Assembly: GCF_018327705.1 (NCBI RefSeq)
Contig: NZ_BNEM01000001.1
Location: 1,178,001-1,242,000 of the forward strand
DNA from: Catellatospora sp. TT07R-123
Lineage (GTDB): Bacteria > Actinomycetota > Actinomycetes > Mycobacteriales > Micromonosporaceae
Direction of reading: 5' to 3'
DNA: 64,000 bases
Of this stretch, positions 32,831 to 45,475 are shown in pieces. A model generated the notes under the pieces. The model was not told the DNA's origin, made no database searches, and was given only the letters and a program-made list of their open reading frames with translations. How positions within the stretch are numbered: position 1 is the first letter of the stretch; each line of letters begins with the position of its first letter. A program made the position numbers and the translations under genes.

Positions 32831-33661
32831 TCAGTACGCCACCCCCAGCGGGATCTCGCACCACTGGCCGCCGACCCGGGTCAGCACCGGGTCCTTGTCG
32901 AAGTCGGGCTCGCCGTGCTGGGCGATCAGCTCCTGCGCGAACACCTCCGCGTCGTCGACCGGGTGGTAGCCCAGCGCCTCGCCCTCGGCCAGCGACCACC
33001 AGCGGCGGGTGTTGCGGCTGATCCCCCACACGATCCGGAACCCCGGCGACGGTACGGTCAGGCACGCCTCGACCAGGCGCACCCCGTCGTCGGGCGACAG
33101 CCACAGCGCCAGACCGCGCAGCCCCGGCGGCTTCGGGAACCACAGCCCGATGCGCAGGCAGACCACGTCCATGCCGAACCGGTCGGCGTAGAGCTGCCCG
33201 CAGGACTCCATCGCGACCTTGCTCCAGCCGTACAGGGTGTCGGGGCGGCCGGGCAGGTCGGCGGGGAGCAGGCCGTCGGCGCCCGTCTGGCCCCGGTCCT
33301 GGAACCCGGCGGCGTGATTGGACGAGGCGAGCACCAGCCGGTTCACCCCTGCGGCGCGGGCCGCCTCCAGCAGCTGGTACGTGCCGAACATGTTGGACTC
33401 CAGCACGTCGCGCACGTCGGACTCGCGGCTCTGGCCGCCCAGGTGCACCACCGCGTCCACCCCGCGCAGCGCGTCGGCCAGCACGTGCGGGTCGGTCAGC
33501 GAGCCGATGACCACCTCCTCGCGGGCACCGCCGCCGTCGTCGGGCAGCGGCGCGGGCGGGCGGATGTCCAGCAGCCGCAGCACCCGGTCCGGGCGCCTCA
33601 TCCCGGTACGCAGCAGCGTGGCGACCTTGCCGGCGCCGCCAGTGATCAAGATTCGCTCCAT
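32831..33661 (-). CDS. udh: NAD-dependent uronate dehydrogenase (SDR/epimerase family)
   Basis: A 276-residue extended short-chain dehydrogenase. Nucleotide motif TGGAGKVA (about 8-15), Ser in LASSNHAAGF and the catalytic YGWSK (Tyr-x3-Lys) are present. The compact length, SNHAAG and the downstream LRIG-FPKP region match uronate dehydrogenases, which oxidise galacturonate or glucuronate to the aldarolactone. This is the missing first step of the pathway encoded at 23881-28651. An in-frame ATG at 33673 would add four residues. An operator of the IclR type lies about 50 bp upstream. Confidence 0.85.
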   Translation of the reverse strand: MERILITGGAGKVATLLRTGMRRPDRVLRLLDIRPPAPLPDDGGGAREEVVIGSLTDPHVLADALRGVDAVVHLGGQSRESDVRDVLESNMFGTYQLLEAARAAGVNRLVLASSNHAAGFQDRGQTGADGLLPADLPGRPDTLYGWSKVAMESCGQLYADRFGMDVVCLRIGLWFPKPPGLRGLALWLSPDDGVRLVEACLTVPSPGFRIVWGISRNTRRWWSLAEGEALGYHPVDDAEVFAQELIAQHGEPDFDKDPVLTRVGGQWCEIPLGVAY

Positions 33662-33711
33662 GGCCAGCAGCATAGCCAGCCCGCCACCGCCCAGCCAAGA
33701 TGCAACCTACC

Positions 33712-33734: not shown

Positions 33735-33765
33735 CGGGCGGGGGCGGGGGCGGGGGCGGGCGGGC
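33735..33765 (+). other. G-rich run with G-quadruplex potential
   Basis: Six consecutive runs of three to five G separated by single C bases, between the uronate dehydrogenase operator and the 27-bp palindrome. Function unknown. Confidence 0.5.
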
Positions 33766-33771
33766 CTATCG

Positions 33772-33833
33772 GACAGTTTCGGGGAAAGTGCTGGAATCCC
33801 GGCCAAGATTCCAGCACTTTCCCCGAAACTGTC
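33772..33833. repeat. palindromic element, family B (27-bp perfect stem)
   Basis: Arms 33772-33798 and 33807-33833 are perfectly complementary around an 8-nt loop. The core is shared with 25217-25280. The genes on both sides point away from it, so it is not a conventional terminator. Confidence 0.8.
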
Positions 33834-33905
33834 GGACCGGCGCACGAGACAGCAGACATCTGCGTATCTCGATGTATGATGCTGTTCCCCCAGTTTGGAG
33901 GCATG

Positions 33906-34203: not shown

Positions 34204-35403
34204 TCAGGCCTGGGTTATCCGGACGCCCAGGCCGCGGAACGCCACGGCGGTGGTGCCGTCGGCCGTGTAGGCGGCGTAGCCGCGCCCCTTGGCGAGGGTC
34301 ACCGCGAAGCGCGGGCCGGTCTGCCGGGAGTAGCCGGTGACGGTGCGGGCGGCGGACCCGGCCAGCCGCAGCGCGAGCGCCGTGGCGACGTCGTCGCCGA
34401 GGACGTCGTCGCCGCCCTCGATCGCGGCCGGGCCGGCCGGGCGCAGGTCGCGCAGCCCGGCCGGGGCGTGCTCGTGCCAGGTACGGGGCCGGTAGTCGAA
34501 GCGCGCCGTCAGGTGGCTCCAGCGGATCCCGTCGCGCAGGTCGAGGATGTTGACGCCGCCGGTGCCGAGCACGCGGCCGCGCTCGTCGGCCCCGCCGGGA
34601 TCGGTGACGAGCAGCGCGGTGTCCGGGTCGAGGCCGTAGACGCGGTCGTGGCCGGTGGTGGCGGCGAGCGTGACGGCGCGGCCCAGGCGGGCGTACGCGG
34701 AGAAGTGCGTGTCGATCAGCCCCGAGGTGAGCAGCCCGAACCCGCCCGCGGGCCAGTAACCGCTCGCGTCGGGGTCGTCGAAGTAGCCGGGGTGGCTGCC
34801 GTCGCGCAGGGCGTTGTAGCTCTCACCGCCGGTGACCATGTCAGCGCCCTGCTGGATCTGGGCACCCGCGCTGGACCCGGCGACCACCGCGCCGCAAGCG
34901 TGGCGCCGCCGGATGGCGGCCATGACCAGCGTGTCGGTGTGGGCGTCGCCGTGCAGCAGCGTGGTGACGTAGCGGAACTGGTCTCCGCCGCCGAAGAAGA
35001 ACCCGGTGCACCCCGCGGCCAGCGCGGCGACGGCCGGGTCGTCGGCGGCGGCGACGTTGTCCAGGTCGACGGGGATCCACACCGCGTCGCCGGCGCCGTG
35101 CGACAGCAGCAGGTCGCGGTAGAACGTGCCGTTGGCCTCGCTGTTGCTGGCGTCCGGGGTGCCCGCGTCGGGGTCCTGGCTGGGCGGCACCGACGCGGCG
35201 GTGAGCACGCCGATGCGGGCCCGGGGCCCGCCCGCACGCCGCACGATCTCGCCGTAGACGTCGGTGTTGTCGTCGGCGAGCGCACCGCCGACGAGGATGA
35301 GCGGGCCCTTGCGGCCGGCGGCGCCGGCGGCGGTGGCGGGTCCGAACGCGGTGAGTGCGGCGGCGCCGAGGGCGCCGGCCAGCACGGAACGTCGATGGGT
35401 CAT
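34204..35403 (-). CDS. exported cyanophycinase-like S51 peptidase
   Basis: A 399-residue protein. The N-terminus HRRSVLAGALGAAAL is a twin-arginine export signal. The S51 fold is marked by FFFGGGDQFR (about 135-144) and the nucleophile elbow AGSSAGAQ with Ser178. The C-terminal ~130 residues are an extension not needed for catalysis. S51 cyanophycinases hydrolyse the poly-Asp/Arg storage polymer cyanophycin to beta-Asp-Arg dipeptides. It is divergent from a second S51 gene at 35661, with RpiR-type palindromes between. GGAGG precedes the ATG at 35403. Confidence 0.85.
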   Translation of the reverse strand: MTHRRSVLAGALGAAALTAFGPATAAGAAGRKGPLILVGGALADDNTDVYGEIVRRAGGPRARIGVLTAASVPPSQDPDAGTPDASNSEANGTFYRDLLLSHGAGDAVWIPVDLDNVAAADDPAVAALAAGCTGFFFGGGDQFRYVTTLLHGDAHTDTLVMAAIRRRHACGAVVAGSSAGAQIQQGADMVTGGESYNALRDGSHPGYFDDPDASGYWPAGGFGLLTSGLIDTHFSAYARLGRAVTLAATTGHDRVYGLDPDTALLVTDPGGADERGRVLGTGGVNILDLRDGIRWSHLTARFDYRPRTWHEHAPAGLRDLRPAGPAAIEGGDDVLGDDVATALALRLAGSAARTVTGYSRQTGPRFAVTLAKGRGYAAYTADGTTAVAFRGLGVRITQA

Positions 35404-35547
35404 GGGAATGCCTCCCGGCGGGGGGAAGGCTCCGCCCGTCGCAGCGTGGTGGGGTTCCGACGGCGGGCGGAGCCGGTCTGGGGTGACACGCACGCCCGGT
35501 GGGGCGATGGGAGGCGACGTTACAAGAGGCCGAACTCTCCGTCTAGA

Positions 35548-35563
35548 TGTAATGAATGTTACA
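35548..35563. promoter_or_regulatory. RpiR-type operator between the two S51 peptidase genes
   Basis: TGTAATGAATGTTACA, similar to the perfect palindrome at 38064-38079. The surrounding region 35404-35660 is AT-rich for this genome and holds further short inverted repeats (TTACAAGA ... TCTTGTAA at 35520-35572; TGTAC-N6-GTACA near 35612), consistent with a divergent regulated promoter. Confidence 0.6.
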
Positions 35564-35660
35564 GTCTTGTAAGTAATAGAAAATACAGATGTACAGATCT
35601 AGAGGCGGCTTGTACTGTGCGGTACATCACAGCGTGGTGGGACTCTCGTGAGGAGAAACA

Positions 35661-37082
35661 ATGCCCCCTGTTCCCCGCCTAGCCGCCGCGACAGCCCTCG
35701 TCGTAGCGGCGTCCACTCTGGTCGCCACCCCCGCCCACGCCGCCGTGACCCGCGTCCGGCAGGGCAGCACCACGGACGTCAGCCGCAGCAGCTGGAGCGG
35801 CCCGGCGTTCACCATGAACGGGTCGGGCGCGATCATCCCGGCCACCATGACCAAGGCCATCGACGCCATCCGGGGCGGCACCGGCAGCATCGACGTCGTG
35901 GTCCTGGCCGGATCGGCGCCCACCTCGGGCAGCAAGACCCCCGAGTGTGACGCGATCACCGCACTGTCCGGGGTCAACTCGTGCACGACGCTGACCCTGA
36001 CCGCGACGAACGACGGCAACAACAGCCAGGTCAACACCGACATCCGCAACGCCGAGTTCGTCTACTTCGCCGGCGGCGACCAGTGCCGCTACGCCGCCTG
36101 GAAGACCACGTCGCTGCGCGCGTCCGTGCAGTCCGTCATCACCAAGGGCGGCGGTTCCGGCGGCGGCAGCGCGGGCCACCACATCAACAGCGCGATCGTG
36201 TACGACGCCTGCAACGGCAGCGTCCTGTCCTCGGAGGCGCTGGCCAACCCGTACGACGGCTACATCAGCTTCACCACCGGGATGTTCAGCTGGCCGAACT
36301 ACGCCAACACGATCAACGACTCGCACTTCGTGACCCGCGACCGGATGGGCCGGACCATGGCCTTCGTCGCCCGCGCCATCAAGGACGGGCTGACCACCGG
36401 GGGCGCGGCCTGGGGCGTCGGCGTCGAGGAGGGCGGCTCGCTGTTCATCGACGCCGCGGGCAGGGCGACACTGTCCGGCGCCGACGCGTACATCGTGCTC
36501 GGTGACCACCAGCCGGAGAAGGCCGTCTCCGGGCAGCCGCTCACCTTCAGCAACTACAAGATCTGGCGGCTGACCAGCGGGCAGAGCTACGACTTCGCCA
36601 ACCGGCCCACCTGCGGCTACTACCTGCGCAGCGTCACCGGCGGCGTCGCCGACGCCAACCTCTACAGCGGCACGCCGGTCACCACCTGTCCCCCGCCCGG
36701 CGGCGGGGGCGGCGGCTCCAGCTACACCGAGGTGGAGGCCAACAACTCCCGCACCACCGCCAACAGCATCGCGGGCCTGACCTACCCGGCCGCCGTCACC
36801 GGCAGCATGGGCAGCACCTCCGACCGCGACTACTTCGCCACCACGCTGAGCAGCGGCCAGACGATCACCGTCGACTGCGCCGTGCCAACGGCCTACGACG
36901 CCGACCTGTACCTGCTCGACAGCGGCGGCAGCACCCTGGTGCGCTCGGTCAACAACGGCGCCGGGATCGACGAGTCGCTGTCGTACACCCGCACCGCGTC
37001 CGGCAGCGCCACCGTCTACGTCGAGCTGGAGGCCTACTCCGGCTCCGGCTCGGCCGCCTACACCTGCACCGTCGCCAAGTGA
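35661..37082 (+). CDS. secreted S51-like peptidase with C-terminal PPC domain
   Basis: A 473-residue exported protein. Sec signal (about 1-28, ending AHA); S51 domain with YFAGGDQCRYAAW (about 135-147) and the nucleophile region GGGSAGHH, Ser170. A Gly-rich linker (about 350-358) leads to a bacterial pre-peptidase C-terminal (PPC) domain at about 365-470 (EVEANNSRTTAN ... GSMGSTSDRDYFA ... YDADLYLLD). PPC domains often help secretion or substrate binding. The acid/base context differs from the other S51 gene, so specificity may differ. GAGGAG precedes the ATG. Confidence 0.82.
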   Translation: MPPVPRLAAATALVVAASTLVATPAHAAVTRVRQGSTTDVSRSSWSGPAFTMNGSGAIIPATMTKAIDAIRGGTGSIDVVVLAGSAPTSGSKTPECDAITALSGVNSCTTLTLTATNDGNNSQVNTDIRNAEFVYFAGGDQCRYAAWKTTSLRASVQSVITKGGGSGGGSAGHHINSAIVYDACNGSVLSSEALANPYDGYISFTTGMFSWPNYANTINDSHFVTRDRMGRTMAFVARAIKDGLTTGGAAWGVGVEEGGSLFIDAAGRATLSGADAYIVLGDHQPEKAVSGQPLTFSNYKIWRLTSGQSYDFANRPTCGYYLRSVTGGVADANLYSGTPVTTCPPPGGGGGGSSYTEVEANNSRTTANSIAGLTYPAAVTGSMGSTSDRDYFATTLSSGQTITVDCAVPTAYDADLYLLDSGGSTLVRSVNNGAGIDESLSYTRTASGSATVYVELEAYSGSGSAAYTCTVAK

Positions 37083-37087
37083 GACCC

Positions 37088-37123
37088 GCGGGTTCCGCCC
37101 GGCACCCGCCGGGCGGAACCCGC
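37088..37123. terminator. terminator hairpin after the S51-PPC gene
   Basis: Perfect 15-bp stem (37088-37102 with 37109-37123) and a 6-nt loop, starting 6 bp after the stop codon. Confidence 0.85.
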
Positions 37124-37166
37124 CGCAGCGCACCCGGCTGGCTACGCTGTGCCGCGGAGGTGGCAG

Positions 37167-38027
37167 ATGACCGCAGTGGAGCACGGCGTCGCAGGAATGA
37201 TCCACGCGAGGCTGGCCGAGTGCAGCCCGGCCGAGCGCCGGGTGGCCCGGGTGCTGCTGGCCGCCTACCCGACGGCGGCGCTGGAGACGGTGGCGGTGCT
37301 GGCCGAGCGGGCCGGCGTCAGCGGTCCGACGGTGCTCCGGTTCGTCAACCGGCTCGGCTTCCGCGGCTACCCGGAGTTCCAGAAGGCGCTGCGCGACGAA
37401 CTGTCCGAACGCGACACCTCGCCGCTGGCCGCGTTCACCGCCGAGCCGCCCGCCGCACCCGGCGGGGCGCTGGAGCGCGCCCGCCGCGTGCTGCCCGCCG
37501 CCGTCGAGGCGACCCTGGCGGAGCTGCCCGAGGCCGAGGTGGAAGCGGCGGTGAAGCTGCTGGCCGACCCGCATCTGCGGGTGACCGCGCACGGCGGCCG
37601 GTTCTCCGGGCTGCTGGCGCACTACCTGGTGATGCACCTGATCCAGGTGCGCGGCAACGCCCGGCTGCTGCCCGCCGGGCAGGTGGAGCGGGCCGGGGCG
37701 CTGGCCGAGCTGGGCCGCCGCGATCTGCTGGTGCTGTTCGACTACCGCCGCTACGAGCAGCCGACGCTGACCATCGCGCAGGCGGCGCGGGAGCACGACT
37801 GCAAGATCATCCTGCTCACGGACCGGTGGCTCTCGCCGATCGCGGGCGTGGCCGACGTGGTGCTGCCGAGCCGGGTCGACTCGCCGTCGGCGTACGACAG
37901 CTTCGTGCCCACCGTCGCGGTGCTGGAGACGCTGATCGACGGCATGATCGCCCGCCTGGGCGCGGCCGCGGGCGAACGACTGAGCTCGATCGAGACCGCC
38001 GCGCAGCGGTACGGGTTACTCGACTGA
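37167..38027 (+). CDS. MurR/RpiR-family transcriptional regulator
   Basis: A 286-residue regulator. N-terminal HTH_6 domain (about 1-77: LAECSPAERRVARVLLA ... LAERAGVSGPTVLRFVNRLGFRGYPEFQKAL) and a C-terminal SIS domain (about 110-250). GGAGG before the ATG at 37167; a GTG at 37149 is unlikely. It lies between the S51 peptidases and the amino-acid transporter and reads towards the transporter. TGTAAT/ATTACA palindromes flank its cluster, suggesting it controls both. A SIS domain usually senses a sugar phosphate, so the true ligand here is an open question. Confidence 0.88.
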   Translation: MTAVEHGVAGMIHARLAECSPAERRVARVLLAAYPTAALETVAVLAERAGVSGPTVLRFVNRLGFRGYPEFQKALRDELSERDTSPLAAFTAEPPAAPGGALERARRVLPAAVEATLAELPEAEVEAAVKLLADPHLRVTAHGGRFSGLLAHYLVMHLIQVRGNARLLPAGQVERAGALAELGRRDLLVLFDYRRYEQPTLTIAQAAREHDCKIILLTDRWLSPIAGVADVVLPSRVDSPSAYDSFVPTVAVLETLIDGMIARLGAAAGERLSSIETAAQRYGLLD

Positions 38028-38034
38028 CCTCTTC

Positions 38035-38079
38035 GTTACATCAAAACGTAACTTCCACTTTTCTGTAATAGCTATTACA
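38035..38079. promoter_or_regulatory. operator region upstream of the amino-acid transporter operon
   Basis: Contains GTTAC-N8-GTAAC (38035-38052) and the perfect 16-bp palindrome TGTAATAGCTATTACA (38064-38079), 40 bp before the solute-binding protein start. The latter matches the site at 35548-35563. Confidence 0.7.
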
Positions 38080-38118
38080 TTCCCCGGTACTGACGTCACG
38101 TCGACCGGGAGGATTCCC

Positions 38119-39066
38119 ATGCGCCTGCGCCGTATCGCGCTCGGCACCGCCGTCCTGGCCACCGCCCTCGCGGCGGCGGCCTGCGGCACCAACGACAGCG
38201 CCGCCCCCACCAGCTCCGCTGATAACCGCACCGTCACCGTGACCATCGACGGCGCCGGAGCCGTCACGACCGACCCGAAGCTCGCCGCCAAGGTCCCCGC
38301 CGACTGGCGCGCCAAGGGCACCGTCACCGTCGCCACCAACGCGCCGTACCAGCCGTTCATCGACTTCCAGAGCGAGGGCGACACCACGAAGTTCAAGGGC
38401 CTGGACTACGACCTGGTCCAGGCCGCCTCCGCCCGGCTCGGGCTGACCCCGCAGTGGAGCCAGCAGCCCTTCGACGGCCTCGTGCCCGGACTCCAGGCCG
38501 CCAAGTACGACATGATCGTCGGCGGTGTCACCGACAAGAAGGCCCGCCAGGAGGTCGCGACCTTCGTGGACTACTCCGCGTCGGGCACCGGCTTCCTGCT
38601 GCTCAAGGACAACCCGCTCGGCATCGACGACGTCGCCGACCTGTGCGGCCGCACCGTCGGCGTCCAGAAGGCCAGCAACCAGGCCAAGAACCTGGCCGAG
38701 TACAGCAAGGCCAGCTGCGGCGGCAAGGACATCACCGTCAAGGAGTACCCGGAGAACCCGCAGGCCGTGCAGGCCCTGCTCGCCGGGGCCGTCCAGGTCG
38801 TCGCCGCGACGAAGGTCAACCTGATGGACACCCAGGCGCAGCTGGCCGACAAGGTCGTGGTCGCCGGTGACAGCGCCAACCCCAACGGGTGGCTGGCCAG
38901 CCCCAACGGCTTCGGCTTCCTCAAGTCGCACCCCGACCTGGCCGGGGCGTACCAGGCCGCGCTCCAGTCCCTGGTCGACGACGGCACCTACGGCAAGATC
39001 CTGGCCCACTGGCAGCAGCAGGCGATCGGCCTGGTGACCATCACCGTCGACAAGGCCATCGACTGA
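38119..39066 (+). CDS. polar amino-acid ABC transporter solute-binding lipoprotein
   Basis: A 315-residue family 3 solute-binding protein. Lipobox AAAC with Cys22; mature domain begins about residue 65 (GTVTVATNAPYQPFIDFQ) and carries the family signature GLDYDLVQAASARLGL. It captures a polar amino acid or small peptide. Together with the downstream permease and ATPase it forms a complete importer; the nearby cyanophycinase-like enzymes and peptidases suggest beta-Asp-Arg or a related dipeptide as cargo, which is inference. Confidence 0.9.
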   Translation: MRLRRIALGTAVLATALAAAACGTNDSAAPTSSADNRTVTVTIDGAGAVTTDPKLAAKVPADWRAKGTVTVATNAPYQPFIDFQSEGDTTKFKGLDYDLVQAASARLGLTPQWSQQPFDGLVPGLQAAKYDMIVGGVTDKKARQEVATFVDYSASGTGFLLLKDNPLGIDDVADLCGRTVGVQKASNQAKNLAEYSKASCGGKDITVKEYPENPQAVQALLAGAVQVVAATKVNLMDTQAQLADKVVVAGDSANPNGWLASPNGFGFLKSHPDLAGAYQAALQSLVDDGTYGKILAHWQQQAIGLVTITVDKAID

Positions 39067-39080
39067 CCGACGCCCGCCCC

Positions 39081-39108
39081 GGGCGGGGCGCGCCGCCGCG
39101 CCCCGCCC
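39081..39108. terminator. intercistronic stem-loop
   Basis: Perfect 11-bp GC stem between the binding-protein and permease genes. Such loops often keep binding-protein mRNA in excess over permease mRNA. Confidence 0.6.
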
Positions 39109-39127
39109 ACCACCGGAGAGCCCCCTC

Positions 39128-39984
39128 ATGACCACACCGAACCGACCGGTCAAGGCCGTGCCGGTGCGCCACTACGGCCGCTGGATCGCCGCGGCCGCCG
39201 TGCTCGCCCTGGCCTACCTCTACGCCACCACCGTGCTGGCCAGCCCCAACCTCGAACCGCACACCATCGGCGCCTACCTGTTCAAGGACTTCGTCCTCGA
39301 CGGCGTACGCACCACGCTGCTGCTCACCGCGCTGTCCATGGCCTTCGGCGTCGCCGGAGGCGTCCTGCTGGCCGTCATGCGGCTGTCGGACAACCCCGTG
39401 CTGCGGGCGGTCGCCGCGGCCTTCGTCTGGTTCTTCCGCGGCACCCCGCTGCTGGTCCAGATCGTCTTCTTCGGCTTCCTGGGCGCGCTGCTGCCCCGGC
39501 TGACCCTCAGCGTGCCGTTCACCGGCATCGTCCTGTTCGACCAGCCCACCAACGCCGTCATGGTCGGCATCGTCCCGGCCGTGCTCGCCCTGTCCTTCAA
39601 CGAGATGGCCTACGCCGCCGAGATCGTGCGCGCCGGCATCCTGTCCGTCGACCCCGGGCAGACCGAGGCCGCGTACGCGCTGGGCATGTCCCCCGCCCTG
39701 AGCATGCGCCGCATCGTGCTGCCGCAGGCCATGCGCGTCATCGCGCCGCCGATGGGCAACGAGGTCATCACCATGCTCAAGTCCACCTCCCTGGTGTCCG
39801 TCATCGCAGGACGCGACCTGATGACCGCGGTGCAGACCGTCTACGCCCAGAACTACAAGGTCATCCCGCTGCTGTGCGTGGCCGCGATCTGGTACCTCGC
39901 GCTGGTCAGCGCCCTGTCGGTGGTGCAGTGGTTCGTCGAGCGCCGGTTCGGCCGGGGCCACCGCCCCGTCGTGGGAGGAATCCG

Positions 39985-39988
<4 letters not shown>
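39128..39988 (+). CDS. polar amino-acid ABC transporter permease
   Basis: A 286-residue HisM/GlnP-type permease with several hydrophobic segments. The motif [16 protein letters not shown] and the EAA-like loop [21 protein letters not shown] are typical. Its stop overlaps the ATPase start (ATGA). A single permease gene implies a homodimeric membrane channel. Confidence 0.92.
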
Positions 39989-40742
<754 letters not shown>

Positions 40743-40746
<4 letters not shown>

Positions 40747-41900
40747 GCCGCGCCCCGGCCCCCGACGCGCTGCTGGCCGCGGCCGGCCGCCGCTACCCGG
40801 CGTTCCTGGCCCGGCTGGCCGAACTCGTCGCCGTCGACAGCGGCTCGCGCCACCTCGGCGGCCTGCGCGAGGTCGCCGAGCTGGTGGGCGGATACTGCCG
40901 CGAAGCCGGGCTTACGGTCGCCCGCGTCCCGGTCGCCGACGGCGGCGAACCGCTGGGCGAGGCGGTGGTCGCCCGGCTGGCCGGGTCCGGCACCCACCGC
41001 GTGCTGCTGGCCGCGCACCTGGACACGGTGTTCCCGCCCGGCACCGCGGCCGACCGGCCGCTGACCGTGGACGGGGCCGCGGGCCGCGCCTTCGGCCCCG
41101 GCGTGTGCGACGACAAGGGCGGGCTGCTCGCCGGGCTCGCCGCGGTCGAGACGCTCACCGCCCTGGACGCGACCGGGTTCGGCGAGGTCGTCCTGGTCGC
41201 CACCCCCGACGAGGAGATCGGCTCCATCGGCAGCAGGCCGCTGCTGGCCGAACTCGCCGCGCAGGCCGACACCATCCTGTGCCTGGAGTGCGCCCGCGAC
41301 AACGGCGACCTCGTCTCGGCCCGCAAGGGCGTCGCGGACGTGGAGATCGACCTGCACGGGCGGGCCGCCCACGCCGGGATCGAGCCCGAACGCGGCGCCA
41401 ACGCGGCGCTGGCCGCGGCCCGGCTGACCGTCGCGTTGCAGGCCCTGCCCGGCGTCAACGTCGGCATCGTGCAGGCCGGGACCCGCGCCAACGTGGTCGC
41501 CGACCGGGCCCGGCTGGTCGTCGACGTCCGCGCGACCGACCCGGCCGCCTACGACGCCGCGCTGGCCGACATCACCCGGCTCACCGCGCGGCCGCTGGTC
41601 GAGGGGGTCACCGCGCGACTGCGCGTGGTCGCGCCCACACCGCCCTGGCCGGGCGGCCCGGGGACGGTCGCGCTGCTCGACATCGCCGCGCGGGTCGGCG
41701 CGACCCTGGGTATCGCGGTCTCGCACGCCGCCACCGGCGGCTGCGCCGACGCGAACCTGCTGGCCGCCTCCGGCAAGCCGGTGCTCGACGGGCTGGGCCC
41801 GGTCGGCGGCGGCGACCACGGCCCCGACGAATGGCTCGACCTCGGCAGCGTCGTGCCCCGGGTCGCGCTGCTCGCCGGGCTGATCAGCAGCCTGCCCTGA
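40743..41900 (+). CDS. M20-family metallopeptidase
   Basis: A 385-residue cytoplasmic zinc peptidase of the glutamate-carboxypeptidase/ArgE/DapE type. Metal and catalytic motifs: HLDTV (first His and Asp), [10 protein letters not shown] (bridging Asp), and TPDEEIGS (catalytic Glu pair); a dimerisation lid follows ([12 protein letters not shown]). GTG start overlapping the ATPase stop (GTGA). Coupling to the importer suggests it cleaves the imported peptide, for example an isoaspartyl dipeptide; the family is broad, so this is inference. Confidence 0.88.
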
Positions 41901-41901
41901 C

Positions 41902-41952
41902 TCCCGGTGCCGGGGGCGGCCGCGCAGGCACGCGCCGCCCCTGGCACCGGGA
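41902..41952. terminator. terminator hairpin after the M20 peptidase
   Basis: 18-nt arms (41902-41919 and 41935-41952) pairing at 17 positions, beginning immediately after the stop codon. Confidence 0.8.
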
Positions 41953-42042
41953 ACGACACCGGCTTCCCCTCCGGCGACGGCAGCCGGGCCGGGCGGAGAA
42001 CTGAGCGCGCCGACGGCACGGCCCGCCGACCGTCATCCGAGG

Positions 42043-43101
42043 TCAGTGACCGCGGCCCCGGCCCAGCAGGTTCAGCAGGCGGTCGTGCGGCACCGCGAAC
42101 TTGACGCGGCCCCGGAACCCGACGGTGGTACGCGCCATGAACAGCGAGTTCAGCAACGCCTCCTCCACCGCTTCCTGCACCGCCGCGAACACCGGCTCCA
42201 GCTCGGACTCCGCCGCCGCCGGGCCGTCCACCTCCGCCGTCGACAGGGCCAGGGCGTAGTCGCCGCTGCCACCGGCGAAGTCGGAGCCGACCCGCCCCAT
42301 CGCGAACACCGCCCGCCGCGCCACCCGGCCCAGTTGCCGGGCGTCGAACCGCCCGTCGGTGGCCACCACGATGACGCACGAGTTGCCCGGATGCTCGGGA
42401 ACGTACGGCGGCAGCGGCGGCCCCGTCGGCACTCCGACCGCCTCGCGGGGCACGGGCACGCCCAGCACCCGGAGCACCCCGGAGAAGTTGGCCTGCACCA
42501 GGACGCCGACGGTGACCGGGCCGCCCCGCGTGGCCGCCAGCCGCGAGGCGGTGCCGATGCCGGCCTTGAACCCGAGCGCCGCCGTCCCGGTCCCCGCCCC
42601 CGCCGCGCCTTCGGCGGGCAGGCCGCCACGGGCCGAGCCCAGTGCGTGCAGGACGTGCTCGGCCCGGATCGGGCGCGCCCGGATGTCGGACAGGAAGCCG
42701 TCGTTGGTCTCGGCGACCAGCGGGTTCAGCGACTGGACCATTTCGCGGCCCGGCTGGGCGAGCACGTGGTCGAGCAGCGCGTCGGCGGCCCGGAACACCG
42801 ACAGCGTCGCGGTCAGCACGACCGGGGTCTCGATCTCGCCGAGTTCGACCACCTGTGTCGACCCGACCAGCTTGCCGTAGCCGTTGCCGACGTACAGCCC
42901 GGCGGGCAGGGAACTCCGGGTGGCCAGCTGGTCGGGGACGATCGCCGTCACGCCGGTGCGGATGTCGGCGCCCTCGACCAGCGTGGTGTGGCCGACCCGG
43001 ATGCCGGGCACGTCGGTGACGGCGTTCAGCGGGCCCGGCGGCAGCTCGCCGACGACGATGTCCAGCTCCCGCGCGCGGCGGGGTTCCTGCGATGCTTCCA
43101 C
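42043..43101 (-). CDS. P1/DmpA-type peptidase (S58-like)
   Basis: A 352-residue N-terminal-nucleophile-like hydrolase of the DmpA/BapA family. Landmarks are NAVTDVPGIRVGHTTL at the N-terminus, a Gly/Ala-rich linker with GFKAGIGTASR, and PGNSCVIVVATDGRF, where the Ser or preceding residues mark the self-processing nucleophile. Relatives include L-aminopeptidase D-Ala-esterase and beta-peptidyl aminopeptidases that cut beta-linked peptides. GTG start with GAGGG upstream. It is convergent with the transporter/M20 operon, so a second isopeptide-cleaving enzyme is a tempting, unproven role. Confidence 0.85.
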   Translation of the reverse strand: MEASQEPRRARELDIVVGELPPGPLNAVTDVPGIRVGHTTLVEGADIRTGVTAIVPDQLATRSSLPAGLYVGNGYGKLVGSTQVVELGEIETPVVLTATLSVFRAADALLDHVLAQPGREMVQSLNPLVAETNDGFLSDIRARPIRAEHVLHALGSARGGLPAEGAAGAGTGTAALGFKAGIGTASRLAATRGGPVTVGVLVQANFSGVLRVLGVPVPREAVGVPTGPPLPPYVPEHPGNSCVIVVATDGRFDARQLGRVARRAVFAMGRVGSDFAGGSGDYALALSTAEVDGPAAAESELEPVFAAVQEAVEEALLNSLFMARTTVGFRGRVKFAVPHDRLLNLLGRGRGH

Positions 43102-43249: not shown

Positions 43250-45475
43250 ATGAGACGTACCCTCGCGGGCGCAGCCGGCGCACTGTTGCTGGCCGCCCTG
43301 CTCACTCCCCTGTCGGCCGCCGCGTCAGCGGCCGCACCCACCGGTGCGCCGACGCTGGCCGCCACCGCCGGCGCCGCGCTCGCGCAGCACCTCGACGTGA
43401 TCCACGGGACCGCGGCCGAGACGTACACGGTCGGGCGCACCATCGCCGACCCCAGCGGCGCCGGACACGTCCGCTACCAGCGCACCTACCACGGCCTGCG
43501 CGTGTACGGCGGCGACCTCGTCGTGCACACCGCCCCCGGCGGCGCGTTCGCGGGCGCCGACACCGGCCTGACCGCCCCGCTCACCCTCGGCGTCCTGCCG
43601 AAGGTGACCGCGAGCGCGGCCGGCGCGAGCGCGGCCAAGGCGTTCACGGGCACGGTCACCTCGGTCGGCTCCGCCGAACTGTTCGTCGACGCCAGCACCC
43701 CGGCCGCGCCCGCGCTGGCCTGGGAGACGGTCGTGCGCGGGTGGGCCCGCGACGGGCAGACCCCCTCGGTGCTGCACGTCATCACCGACGCGCGCACCGG
43801 CGCGGTCCGCGGCAGCTTCGACGAGATCGAGAACGTGCTGGGCACCGGCAACTCGATGTACTCCGGCACCGTCTCGATCGACACCACGCTGACCTCGTCG
43901 TCGCCGGTGACCTACTCGCTGATCGACCCGTCGCACGGCAACGGCCGGGTGTGCAGCATGGGCGGCGGCACCGGCACCAGCTGCACCGTCATGACCGACG
44001 CCGACAACGTTTGGGGCAACGGCTCGGCCAGCAACACGCAGACCGCCGGGGTAGACGCGCACTTCGGTGCCGCCAAGACCTACGACTACTTCAAGAACGT
44101 CCACAGCCGCTGCGGCATCTGGGGCGACTGCAACGGCGTCGTCTCGCGGGTGCACTACGGCAGCAACTACGTCAACGCGTTCTGGGACGGCACCCAGATG
44201 ACCTACGGCGACGGTTCGAGCAACCTCAAGCCGCTGACCGCGCTGGACGTCGCCGGGCACGAGATGAGCCACGGCGTCACCGAGGCCCTGGCCGGGCTGG
44301 TCTACGCCAACGAGTCGGGCGGCCTCAACGAGTCCACCAGCGACATCTTCGGCAACATGGTCGAGTTCTACGCGGGCGTGGCCGCCGACCCGGGCGACTA
44401 CAGCGTCGGCGAGAAGATCGACATCTTCGGCACCGGGCAGCCGCTGCGCTACATGTACAACCCGCCGCTGGACGGCGCGTCGTACGGCTGCTGGTCCTCC
44501 GCTGTCGCCGGCGCCGACCCGCACTACTCCTCCGGCGTCGGCAACCACTTCTTCTTCGACCTGGCCGAGGGCACCGGCGCCACCGCGTACGGCACCAGCC
44601 CGGTCTGCGGCTCGGCCCCGGCCGTGGTCGGCATCGGCCGCGCCAAGGCCGAGAAGATCTGGTACCGGGCACTGGACGTGTACTTCGTCTCCAGCGAGAC
44701 GTACGCGCAGGCCCGCACCCACACGCTGGCCGCCGCGGCCGACCTGTACGGCTCCTGCTCGACCGAGTACAAGGCCGTGCACGCGGCCTGGGCCGCGGTC
44801 GCCGTCACCGGCGCCGACCCGTGCGTCACGGGCCCGACCGCCGGCAGCCTCGTCTGGCTGCGCGCCGACGCGGGCGTCACCAGCAGCGCGGGCAAGGTCA
44901 GCAACTGGGCCGACCAGAGCGGCACCGGCCACCACGCCAGCATGACCGTCGCCGCCCGCCAGCCGAGCCTGGTCAGCAGCGTCGTCAACGGCAAGCCGGT
45001 GATCCGGTTCGGCGGCAGCCAGTCGCTGAGCCTGGTCACCATCAACCCGACGGCGTTCACGGTGTTCGTGGTGGGCAAGAACTCCAACCCCGCCGAGTCG
45101 TACAGCATGATCCTCGGGCCGGGCGGCAACAACGCCAACAACCAGCTGCGCTGGGAGAGCGGCACCAAGTCGCTGGTGTACGGGTCCAACGGCCTCGGGA
45201 CCACGACCAGCACCATCGGCAACACCCGGGTCTTCCACGACCTGGTGATCCGGTATGACGGCAGCACGCTCAAGGTCTACCGCGACGGCACGCTGTACAG
45301 CTCCACCGCCGTGGCGGCCAGCGGCGGGTGGTCGATCAACCAGATCGGCGCCTACTACTCGTCCTCGTTCATGCTGGGCGACCTCGCCGAGCTGCTGGTC
45401 TACCCCAGCGCCCTCAGCGACACCGACCGCACCACCAATCAGAACTACCTGAAGTCCAAGTACGCCCTGCCGTAA
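43250..45475 (+). CDS. secreted M4 thermolysin-like metalloprotease with C-terminal LamG-like domain
   Basis: A 741-residue prepro-protease. Signal peptide (about 1-28), FTP/propeptide region (about 40-190), catalytic domain with zinc motif HEMSH (337-341) and third ligand Glu361 in GGLNESTSDIFGN, and the GVGNHFFFDLAEG segment with the transition-state His. Residues about 525-741 form a concanavalin/LamG-like domain (VWLRADAGV ... IRYDGSTLKVYRDGTL), probably for glycan or protein binding. GGAGAGG precedes the ATG. Extracellular protein digestion fits the peptide-scavenging genes next door. Confidence 0.92.
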   Translation: MRRTLAGAAGALLLAALLTPLSAAASAAAPTGAPTLAATAGAALAQHLDVIHGTAAETYTVGRTIADPSGAGHVRYQRTYHGLRVYGGDLVVHTAPGGAFAGADTGLTAPLTLGVLPKVTASAAGASAAKAFTGTVTSVGSAELFVDASTPAAPALAWETVVRGWARDGQTPSVLHVITDARTGAVRGSFDEIENVLGTGNSMYSGTVSIDTTLTSSSPVTYSLIDPSHGNGRVCSMGGGTGTSCTVMTDADNVWGNGSASNTQTAGVDAHFGAAKTYDYFKNVHSRCGIWGDCNGVVSRVHYGSNYVNAFWDGTQMTYGDGSSNLKPLTALDVAGHEMSHGVTEALAGLVYANESGGLNESTSDIFGNMVEFYAGVAADPGDYSVGEKIDIFGTGQPLRYMYNPPLDGASYGCWSSAVAGADPHYSSGVGNHFFFDLAEGTGATAYGTSPVCGSAPAVVGIGRAKAEKIWYRALDVYFVSSETYAQARTHTLAAAADLYGSCSTEYKAVHAAWAAVAVTGADPCVTGPTAGSLVWLRADAGVTSSAGKVSNWADQSGTGHHASMTVAARQPSLVSSVVNGKPVIRFGGSQSLSLVTINPTAFTVFVVGKNSNPAESYSMILGPGGNNANNQLRWESGTKSLVYGSNGLGTTTSTIGNTRVFHDLVIRYDGSTLKVYRDGTLYSSTAVAASGGWSINQIGAYYSSSFMLGDLAELLVYPSALSDTDRTTNQNYLKSKYALP

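What the first reader, a model, noticed from the sequence alone, without database searches (positions are those of the whole stretch)
34204..43101. Possible extracellular cyanophycin (or isoaspartyl-peptide) scavenging cluster under an RpiR regulator
Two exported S51 peptidases, a polar amino-acid importer, an M20 peptidase translationally coupled to its ATPase gene, a P1/DmpA-type peptidase and an RpiR regulator lie together with shared palindromes. Cyanophycinases yield beta-Asp-Arg dipeptides outside the cell; the importer and peptidases could take up and split them. I know of cyanophycin-recycling gene sets in bacteria, but not one built on this RpiR plus M20/P1 combination. Function is inferred from families and layout.
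Basis: partly seen in the sequence, partly recalled or inferred. Interest (0 to 1): 0.8.

Follow-up and report, generated by a model that had tools for sequence, protein, structure and literature searches.

The report
Conserved actinobacterial cyanophycin-scavenging gene set (candidate)
A seven-gene set found in many soil actinobacteria appears to cut up an aspartate-containing storage polymer outside the cell, import the fragments and split them with a peptidase not previously linked to that job; it is inferred from sequence and untested at the bench.

Summary
The core is a seven-gene unit: two exported S51 peptidases, an RpiR regulator, a one-permease polar amino-acid importer and an M20 peptidase. 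Of 99 distinct loci (Catellatospora, Micromonospora, Streptomyces, Kitasatospora and others) 85 hold all seven, median span 7.9 kb, in several gene orders. The P1/DmpA (S58) gene is not part of it (0 of 98 other loci). A palindrome TGTAA-N6-TTACA lies before the S51 pair and the importer; exact TGTAAY-N4-RTTACA copies occur only there in the 9.17-Mb genome. S51b is predicted to fold like cyanophycinase and keeps its published pocket residues. Aspartate ammonia-lyase joins 18 loci, with operator-like sites upstream in 17. The genus lacks IaaA and AstE/AspA-type enzymes and has no IadA above cut-off. Best reading: scavenging of cyanophycin or a close beta-aspartyl polymer, with M20 as a candidate new dipeptide hydrolase. 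The cyanophycin-utilization locus is known; I found no paper on this version in my searches. Substrate untested; both S51 proteins score below the cyanophycinase cut-off, and S51a here departs from its pattern at two positions.

The parts
34204..35403 (-). S51a: S51 peptidase, cyanophycinase-like; twin-arginine-like leader (by eye)
   Evidence: TIGR02069 96.1 bits, cut-off 126.6; 3en0 E=1.2e-9; profile vs three cyanophycinase-family PDB sequences E 1.1e-20 to 2.5e-19; Q142, S178, D231, T232, H233, R239, R242 in 88 of 88; Arg178 position Tyr here, acid position Pro here
35661..37082 (+). S51b: S51 peptidase, cyanophycinase-like, Sec-type leader (by eye), C-terminal PPC domain
   Evidence: TIGR02069 52.6 bits; PPC; no PDB sequence hit alone; AF2 pLDDT 93.6; Foldseek top 9 chains are six cyanophycinase and three pseudo-CphB, E 1.4e-15 to 1e-13; pocket residues kept in 94-95 of 95
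37167..38027 (+). RpiR-family regulator (HTH_6 + SIS) with unusual SIS loops (GGRF; FDxRRYE)
   Evidence: loop residues 88 of 88
38119..39066 (+). SBP_bac_3 lipoprotein (importer binding protein)
   Evidence: closest to Lys/Arg/Orn and glutamine/arginine binders; R143 93 of 93, T231 85 of 93
39128..39988 (+). polar amino-acid ABC permease
39985..40746 (+). ABC ATPase, overlapping the permease stop
40743..41900 (+). M20 metallopeptidase (carboxypeptidase-G2-like), overlapping the ATPase stop; candidate beta-Asp-X dipeptide hydrolase
   Evidence: H92, D94, D124, E157, E158, E182, H210 in 89 of 89, H359 in 87 with 2 gaps
35548..35563 (.). operator TGTAATGAATGTTACA in the S51a/S51b divergent promoter
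35572..35587 (.). degenerate operator-like site (2 mismatches)
35611..35626 (.). degenerate operator-like site (2 mismatches), 63 bp from the first
38064..38079 (.). operator TGTAATAGCTATTACA upstream of the importer
37088..37123 (.). hairpin after S51b (16-nt arms, 100%), terminator-like
41902..41952 (.). hairpin between M20 and S58 (19-nt arms, 95%), likely end of the unit

Best explanation
A scavenging regulon for extracellular cyanophycin or a very close beta-aspartyl polymer. Two secreted cyanophycinase-type serine peptidases release beta-Asp-X dipeptides (beta-Asp-Arg if the polymer is cyanophycin). The lipoprotein and ABC importer take them up. The cytosolic M20 enzyme hydrolyses them; beta-Asp-Arg is chemically an N-acyl-arginine, the kind of bond M20 deacylases cut. 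The products feed nitrogen metabolism, in some Streptomyces through aspartate ammonia-lyase encoded beside the set. The RpiR protein controls the S51 and importer promoters through TGTAA-N6-TTACA and probably senses the dipeptide or a product. Shown by sequence: gene set, linkage, operators, S51b fold similarity, absence of the tested dipeptidase families above threshold in the genus. Inferred: polymer identity, M20 activity, importer ligand, effector, and that RpiR is the protein that binds the palindrome.
For: Seven-gene linkage in 85 of 99 loci across several gene orders. In 354 family genomes S51b orthologues (E <= 1e-103) occur in 40 and M20 orthologues (E <= 1e-60) in 39, together in 37. 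Both M20-only genomes still hold S51a: G054 with the importer, G009 as a remnant pair. Operators: 146 of 150 near-exact sites lie in cluster promoters, mononucleotide shuffles give 3.7. The only two TIGR02069 hits of the genome are here. S51b fold: cyanophycinases E down to 1.4e-15, peptidase E 3.3e-7 or weaker. Pocket residues. Aspartate ammonia-lyase in 18 of 99 loci; a site with at most 3 mismatches upstream in 17 of 18 (0.61 expected from dinucleotide shuffles) and a pair 38-39 bp apart in 14 of 18 (0.005 expected; 6 of 387 other ORFs). No CphA over cut-off, no IaaA, no IadA over cut-off, no AstE/AspA in 11 genus genomes, so M20 is the only hydrolase in the set for the dipeptide. SBP keeps the Arg that aligns with the carboxylate-binding Arg of LAO but mostly has Thr where LAO has the amino-binding Asp (residue roles recalled), which suits a ligand with a blocked alpha-amino group.
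Against: No assay. Both S51 proteins score below the cyanophycinase cut-off. Window S51a has Tyr for Arg178 and Pro for the catalytic Glu. The best PDB sequence-profile hit of S51a and S51b, 7uqv, is titled pseudo-CphB, so conserved residues may not guarantee activity. M20's nearest solved relative, carboxypeptidase G2, removes C-terminal glutamate (recalled). Apart from aspartate ammonia-lyase the recurrent-neighbour lists, read by eye, show no obvious arginine-catabolic gene, and 81 of 99 loci have no aspartate ammonia-lyase in the fetched stretch. PMC10206079 reports that all 35 cphA1-bearing Actinomycetota genomes have IadA and/or IaaA, so a new dipeptidase is not called for in the phylum at large. 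RpiR proteins usually sense sugar phosphates (recalled). Six of 11 genus genomes lack the complete set (five have no S51 match, one a remnant).
Confidence: 0.6

Rival explanations
1. The same architecture, but the polymer is another aspartate-rich or isoaspartyl substrate (polyaspartate, isoaspartyl peptides from aged protein); the M20 enzyme frees aspartate from beta-aspartyl peptides in general.
For: Aspartate ammonia-lyase points to aspartate, not to arginine; no obvious arginine-catabolic gene in the recurrent-neighbour lists; the Arg178 position of S51a is not Arg in 58 of 88 relatives; an M20 poly(aspartic acid) hydrolase is a weak relative of this M20 (7ljh, E 1.6e-5).
Against: S51b keeps all three pocket arginines and Gln in 95 of 95 and Asp in 94 of 95; predicted fold closer to cyanophycinase than to peptidase E.
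Confidence: 0.2
2. A peptide or N-acyl-glutamate scavenging unit: M20 acts like carboxypeptidase G2 on C-terminal Glu, and the S51 enzymes act as general aspartyl peptidases.
For: M20 closest to carboxypeptidase G2 and NCBIfam glutamate carboxypeptidase PRK06133, 284 bits, below its cut-off of 349.
Against: Aspartate ammonia-lyase is the most recurrent extra gene near the set in Streptomyces-type loci; S51b is not peptidase-E-like in its predicted fold.
Confidence: 0.12
3. The S51 enzymes protect against peptidyl-nucleotide antibiotics (microcin-C-like), as described for some S51 peptidases.
For: S51 peptidases can do this (PMC9239234, start of abstract seen in search listing).
Against: That abstract describes a toxic payload released inside the cell; here both S51 proteins carry export leaders (read by eye) and sit with an importer and, in some relatives, a catabolic lyase.
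Confidence: 0.02
4. Chance neighbours without common function.
For: None of weight.
Against: Set kept together across rearrangements with shared operators.
Confidence: 0.01

Closest known systems
Cyanophycin utilization locus (Ben Hania et al., known to me only as cited in PMC10206079, sections 5, 6, 8 and passages read) and cyanophycinase + IaaA/IadA + transporter clusters in genomes without cphA1
   Same: Cyanophycinase-type enzymes, amino-acid transporter, no cyanophycin synthetase over cut-off in the genus
   Different: No IadA (above cut-off) or IaaA; an M20 peptidase instead; two S51 types; RpiR regulator with its own operator; Actinomycetota
CphZ (M14/AstE-AspA-type) dipeptide hydrolase and the Pseudomonas aot operon (name and operon recalled; family annotation and specificity from PMC10206079 section 8)
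   Same: Polar amino-acid ABC importer coupled to a beta-Asp-Arg hydrolase (recalled)
   Different: Hydrolase is M20; AstE/AspA is absent from 11 of 11 genus genomes
Extracellular cyanophycinase CphE of Pseudomonas (PMC3235067, passages read)
   Same: Exported; Asp-Thr-His at the active site as in S51a; Gln, Asp, Arg pocket as in S51b
   Different: S51b has Asp-Ser-His and a PPC domain; window S51a lacks the Arg178 and Glu equivalents
Carboxypeptidase G2 (M20)
   Same: Nearest solved relative; zinc-ligand positions shared in alignment (residue roles recalled)
   Different: Specificity unknown here; gene coupled to the importer

Membership tests
Cyanophycinase (CphB/CphE), applied to S51b | S51 fold closest to solved cyanophycinases | tested here: met
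   AF2 pLDDT 93.6; Foldseek top 9 chains: six cyanophycinase, three pseudo-CphB, E 1.4e-15 to 1e-13, TM (target) 0.74-0.80; peptidase E 3.3e-7 or weaker
Cyanophycinase (CphB/CphE), applied to S51b | Ser132, His174, Gln101, Asp172, Arg178, Arg180, Arg183 equivalents (list from PMC3235067) | tested here: met
   95, 95, 95, 94, 95, 95, 95 of 95
Cyanophycinase (CphB/CphE), applied to S51b | Catalytic Glu | tested here: inconclusive
   Position 257: E in 82 of 95, Q 7, D 4, R 2; window has E; alignment to CphB weak here
Cyanophycinase (CphB/CphE), applied to S51a | Same residue set including Arg178 and the catalytic Glu | tested here: not met
   Window S51a has Tyr237 and Pro260; Arg in 30 of 88, Glu in 78 of 88. 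S51a is therefore called cyanophycinase-like only
NCBIfam TIGR02069 cyanophycinase | Score over curated cut-off 126.6 bits | tested here: not met
   96.1 and 52.6 bits
Cyanophycin utilization locus | Cyanophycinase-type gene + transporter clustered, no cphA1 | tested here: met
   no CphA over cut-off in 11 of 11 genus genomes
Cyanophycin utilization locus | Known isoaspartyl dipeptidase (IadA or IaaA) in the cluster | tested here: not met
   IaaA 0 of 11 genomes; IadA none over cut-off (8 of 11 have weak pieces, best 25 of 331 bits), no match in G000
Cyanophycinase | Hydrolysis of cyanophycin to beta-Asp-Arg | not testable with these tools
   needs purified enzyme
M20 metallopeptidase, active | Zinc ligands and catalytic Glu (roles recalled) | tested here: met
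   H92, D94, D124, E157, E158, E182 in 89 of 89; H359 in 87 of 89 with 2 gaps

The most novel reading that the evidence does not exclude
The M20 enzymes of this set are a further class of beta-Asp-Arg/beta-Asp-X dipeptide hydrolase, unrelated to IaaA, IadA and CphZ, and the RpiR protein is a peptide sensor whose SIS domain has traded its phosphosugar loop for a conserved FDxRRYE loop; together they form a dedicated polymer-scavenging regulon widespread in Streptomyces and Micromonosporaceae.
Probability: 0.45. Interest if true: 0.72.

Novelty: new variant of a known kind. Interest (0 to 1): 0.6.

Why it matters
[quoted passage not shown] This set gives a concrete, cloneable candidate (M20) with matched peptidases, importer and regulator, found in common laboratory genera such as Streptomyces, and suggests that many soil actinobacteria eat other bacteria's nitrogen-storage polymer.

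Tried and rejected
S58/P1 as a member: rejected, 0 of 98 other loci within the fetched stretches of about 8 to 21 kb; I did not look for it elsewhere in those genomes. Cyanophycin made by the same cell: no CphA over cut-off in 11 genus genomes. First AlphaFold run of S51b with a narrow alignment failed (pLDDT 51.4); repeated on the catalytic domain with S51a rows added. VIA-align was unavailable. Paper searches: cyanophycin with RpiR and Streptomyces, cyanophycinase with Micromonospora, and pseudo-CphB gave none; cyanophycin with CphZ gave one paper that mentions it once, so what I say of CphZ and the aot operon beyond PMC10206079 is recalled. Cyanophycin with M20 and peptidase: 7 papers listed; of these only PMC11078827 was opened (passages). 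A phylum sample (396 genomes, 21 over the cut-off) put window S51a below those 21 and one partial hit; I did not examine neighbours there.

Caveats on counts: the 99 loci are S51b-centred plus the G009 remnant and G054, left after dropping 20 duplicates from 119; a few come from one contig or strain (Kitasatospora phosalacinea pairs L163/L184 and L170/L185; S. wedmorensis L120/L188; Streptacidiphilus ASG 303 L119/L175), so they are not fully independent. L163/L184 means that the 18 aspartate ammonia-lyase loci are 17 contigs; in those two the gene is not adjacent to S51b; L147 holds only a 72-residue piece. Of the 14 incomplete loci, L110, L153, L159, L163, L180, L181 and L187 have hits at or near a locus end and look truncated. 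Gene orders were counted on 79 loci only; L093's order is an artefact of a merged reading frame, and loci with two RpiR or two SBP genes may be split. The neighbour lists rest on a crude GC3-based gene finder. Residue counts drop short or unparsed proteins (95 S51b, 88 S51a, 88 RpiR, 93 SBP, 89 of 91 M20). The operator control is a mononucleotide shuffle of whole loci (3 rounds) and does not model AT-rich intergenic DNA; that is a dinucleotide shuffle of the upstream windows.
Full report
What is there. Between 34204 and 41900 lie S51a (-), S51b (+), an RpiR regulator, a family-3 binding lipoprotein, one permease, one ATPase and an M20 peptidase. Permease, ATPase and M20 overlap stop-to-start. 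The S58/P1 gene (42043-43101, -) follows after a hairpin.

Conservation. In 11 genus genomes S51a, S51b and the M20 orthologue (78-80% identical) occur together in five; five have no match to S51a or S51b and only distant M20 paralogues (about 37-44%); the sixth, G009, keeps only adjacent pieces of S51a and M20, as a single internal deletion would leave. In 354 family genomes S51b orthologues (E <= 1e-103) are in 40 (18 more have weak hits, E >= 3e-7), M20 orthologues (E <= 1e-60) in 39, both in 37. S51b without M20: G155 (alone), G174 (contig end) and G290 (broken S51b, M20 fragment). M20 without S51b: G009, and G054, which keeps S51a, RpiR and the importer. A scan of named genomes gave 77 loci. 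With the 40 regions, G054 and the window that makes 119; after removing 20 duplicates 99 remain, and all seven families are hit in 85, median span 7.9 kb, range 7.1 to 11.0. The 14 incomplete ones are seven that look cut by locus ends, two with S51b alone (L105, L175), one partial (L133), one without RpiR (L129), one degraded (L107), G054 and the G009 remnant. Order and orientation vary (13 arrangements in 79 loci, some from RpiR or SBP duplicates or a merged frame), so the link is not mere lack of rearrangement. Within the fetched stretches S58 is in 0 of 98 other loci, the Azf-like SDR in 0, M4 in 1.

Operator. TGTAA-N6-TTACA with at most one mismatch occurs 150 times in 1.96 Mb of loci; 146 lie within about 300 bp upstream of S51a, S51b, SBP or RpiR; mononucleotide shuffles give 3.7. 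Of 42 Micromonosporaceae loci 36 have it at both the S51 and the SBP promoter; over all 99 loci 66 have it at an S51 gene and 67 at SBP or RpiR, so many Streptomyces-type loci lack a near-exact copy. Genome-wide the exact TGTAAYNNNNRTTACA pattern is found twice in G000, both here. In the 11 genus genomes there are nine sites; seven are in clusters and two (G001, G003) elsewhere; the reversed control pattern gives none. In the window at up to 2 mismatches there are four sites, all in the two promoters, with 1.37 expected.

S51 enzymes. S51b: TIGR02069 52.6 bits, S51a 96.1, cut-off 126.6. These two are the genome's only hits of that family. The S51b catalytic-domain model (pLDDT 93.6, pTM 0.91; its alignment mixes S51b and S51a rows) matches in first place six cyanophycinase and three pseudo-CphB chains at E 1.4e-15 to 1e-13 (15-20% identity), then an acI actinobacterial peptidase (6nqc) at 6.3e-10 and peptidase E at 3.3e-7 or weaker. 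Residues reported as critical in cyanophycinase (PMC3235067, passages) are kept: in S51b Gln, Ser, His and the three Arg in 95 of 95, Asp in 94; in S51a Gln, Ser, Asp, Thr, His and two Arg in 88 of 88, the Asp-Thr-His being as in CphE. Against: in S51a the Arg178 position is Arg in only 30 of 88 and Tyr in the window, and the Glu position is Pro in the window (Glu in 78 of 88). Arg178 is described as needed for binding beta-(Asp-Arg)2 (PMC12661447, passage). The title of a paper cited in PMC11078827 (passages seen) speaks of catalytic-triad heterogeneity in S51, so loss of the Glu need not mean inactivity. Also against: the best sequence-profile hit of both, 7uqv, is a protein titled pseudo-CphB.

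Downstream chemistry. Aspartate ammonia-lyase, the most recurrent extra gene near the set (16 of 57 Streptomyces-type loci by the crude gene finder), matches in 18 of 99 loci by tblastn, all from Streptomyces or Kitasatospora, 16 of them directly downstream of S51b and facing it. Three representatives pass the NCBIfam subfamily NF008909 (653 to 669 bits, cut-off 510) but not the stricter TIGR00839 (593 to 603, cut-off 681). Upstream of the gene a site with at most 3 mismatches to TGTAAC-N4-GTTACA is found in 17 of 18 (0.61 expected from dinucleotide shuffles), and a pair of looser sites 38-39 bp apart in 14 of 18 (0.005 expected; 6 of 387 other non-core ORFs). M20 aligns with carboxypeptidase G2 (1.7e-68 for 1cg2) and keeps the metal site. 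IaaA (PF01112) and AstE/AspA (PF24827) are in 0 of 11 genus genomes; IadA has no hit over cut-off, and none at all in G000. Those 11 include genomes without the set, so absence is not correlated with it. That PF24827 covers CphZ rests on the annotation quoted in PMC10206079 section 8. The same paper (section 5) finds IadA and/or IaaA in all 35 cphA1-bearing Actinomycetota genomes, which tells against a general need for a new enzyme in the phylum.

Importer and regulator. The lipoprotein aligns with Lys/Arg/Orn binders; it keeps Arg143 in 93 of 93 but has Thr231 in 85 of 93 (Asp in 8) at the position of the LAO amino-binding Asp (residue roles recalled). The RpiR SIS domain has invariant GGRF and F-D-x-R-R-Y-E in 88 of 88 in place of the usual Ser-rich phosphosugar loop (loop motif recalled). 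I did not test whether other RpiR subfamilies share this loop, nor that this RpiR binds the palindrome.

Known or new. Scavenging loci of cyanophycinase, isoaspartyl dipeptidase and transporter are described (PMC10206079, sections 5, 6 and 8 read). I found no paper on this RpiR/M20 version in searches (listings only, and capped at 15 of 1,072), which cover open-licence papers only. I file it as a new variant of the cyanophycin utilization locus by analogy of working, not as a proven member: the known-dipeptidase feature is not met.

Verdict.

Noticed in passing
33764-33841: Near-perfect inverted repeat, 35-nt arms, 91% complementary, 8-nt loop, between the Azf-like SDR and a small secreted-looking ORF; possibly a terminator or a small mobile repeat.
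   Followed up: no
42043-43101: S58/DmpA-type aminopeptidase (2drh, E 1e-68), not linked to the S51/M20 set in the fetched relatives.
   Followed up: partly
43250-45475: Secreted-looking M4 thermolysin-type protease with a C-terminal laminin-G-like domain.
   Followed up: no
32831-33673: SDR resembling NAD-dependent glucose-6-phosphate dehydrogenase Azf (139 bits, below the cut-off of 400), next to an ORF that reads like an IclR-type regulator (by eye).
   Followed up: no
L136, L143, L152, L163, L170, L172 (second SBP); L127, L137, L152, L162, L168, L172 (second RpiR): Some Streptomyces-type loci carry a second binding protein or a second RpiR gene beside the set.
   Followed up: partly
L163/L184, L170/L185, L119/L175: Kitasatospora phosalacinea and Streptacidiphilus ASG 303 carry a second S51b-like gene, beside the set or alone.
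   Followed up: no
G003:C26:47333-47348 and G001:C25:174078-174093: Exact operator-like palindromes outside the cluster with a different core.
   Followed up: no
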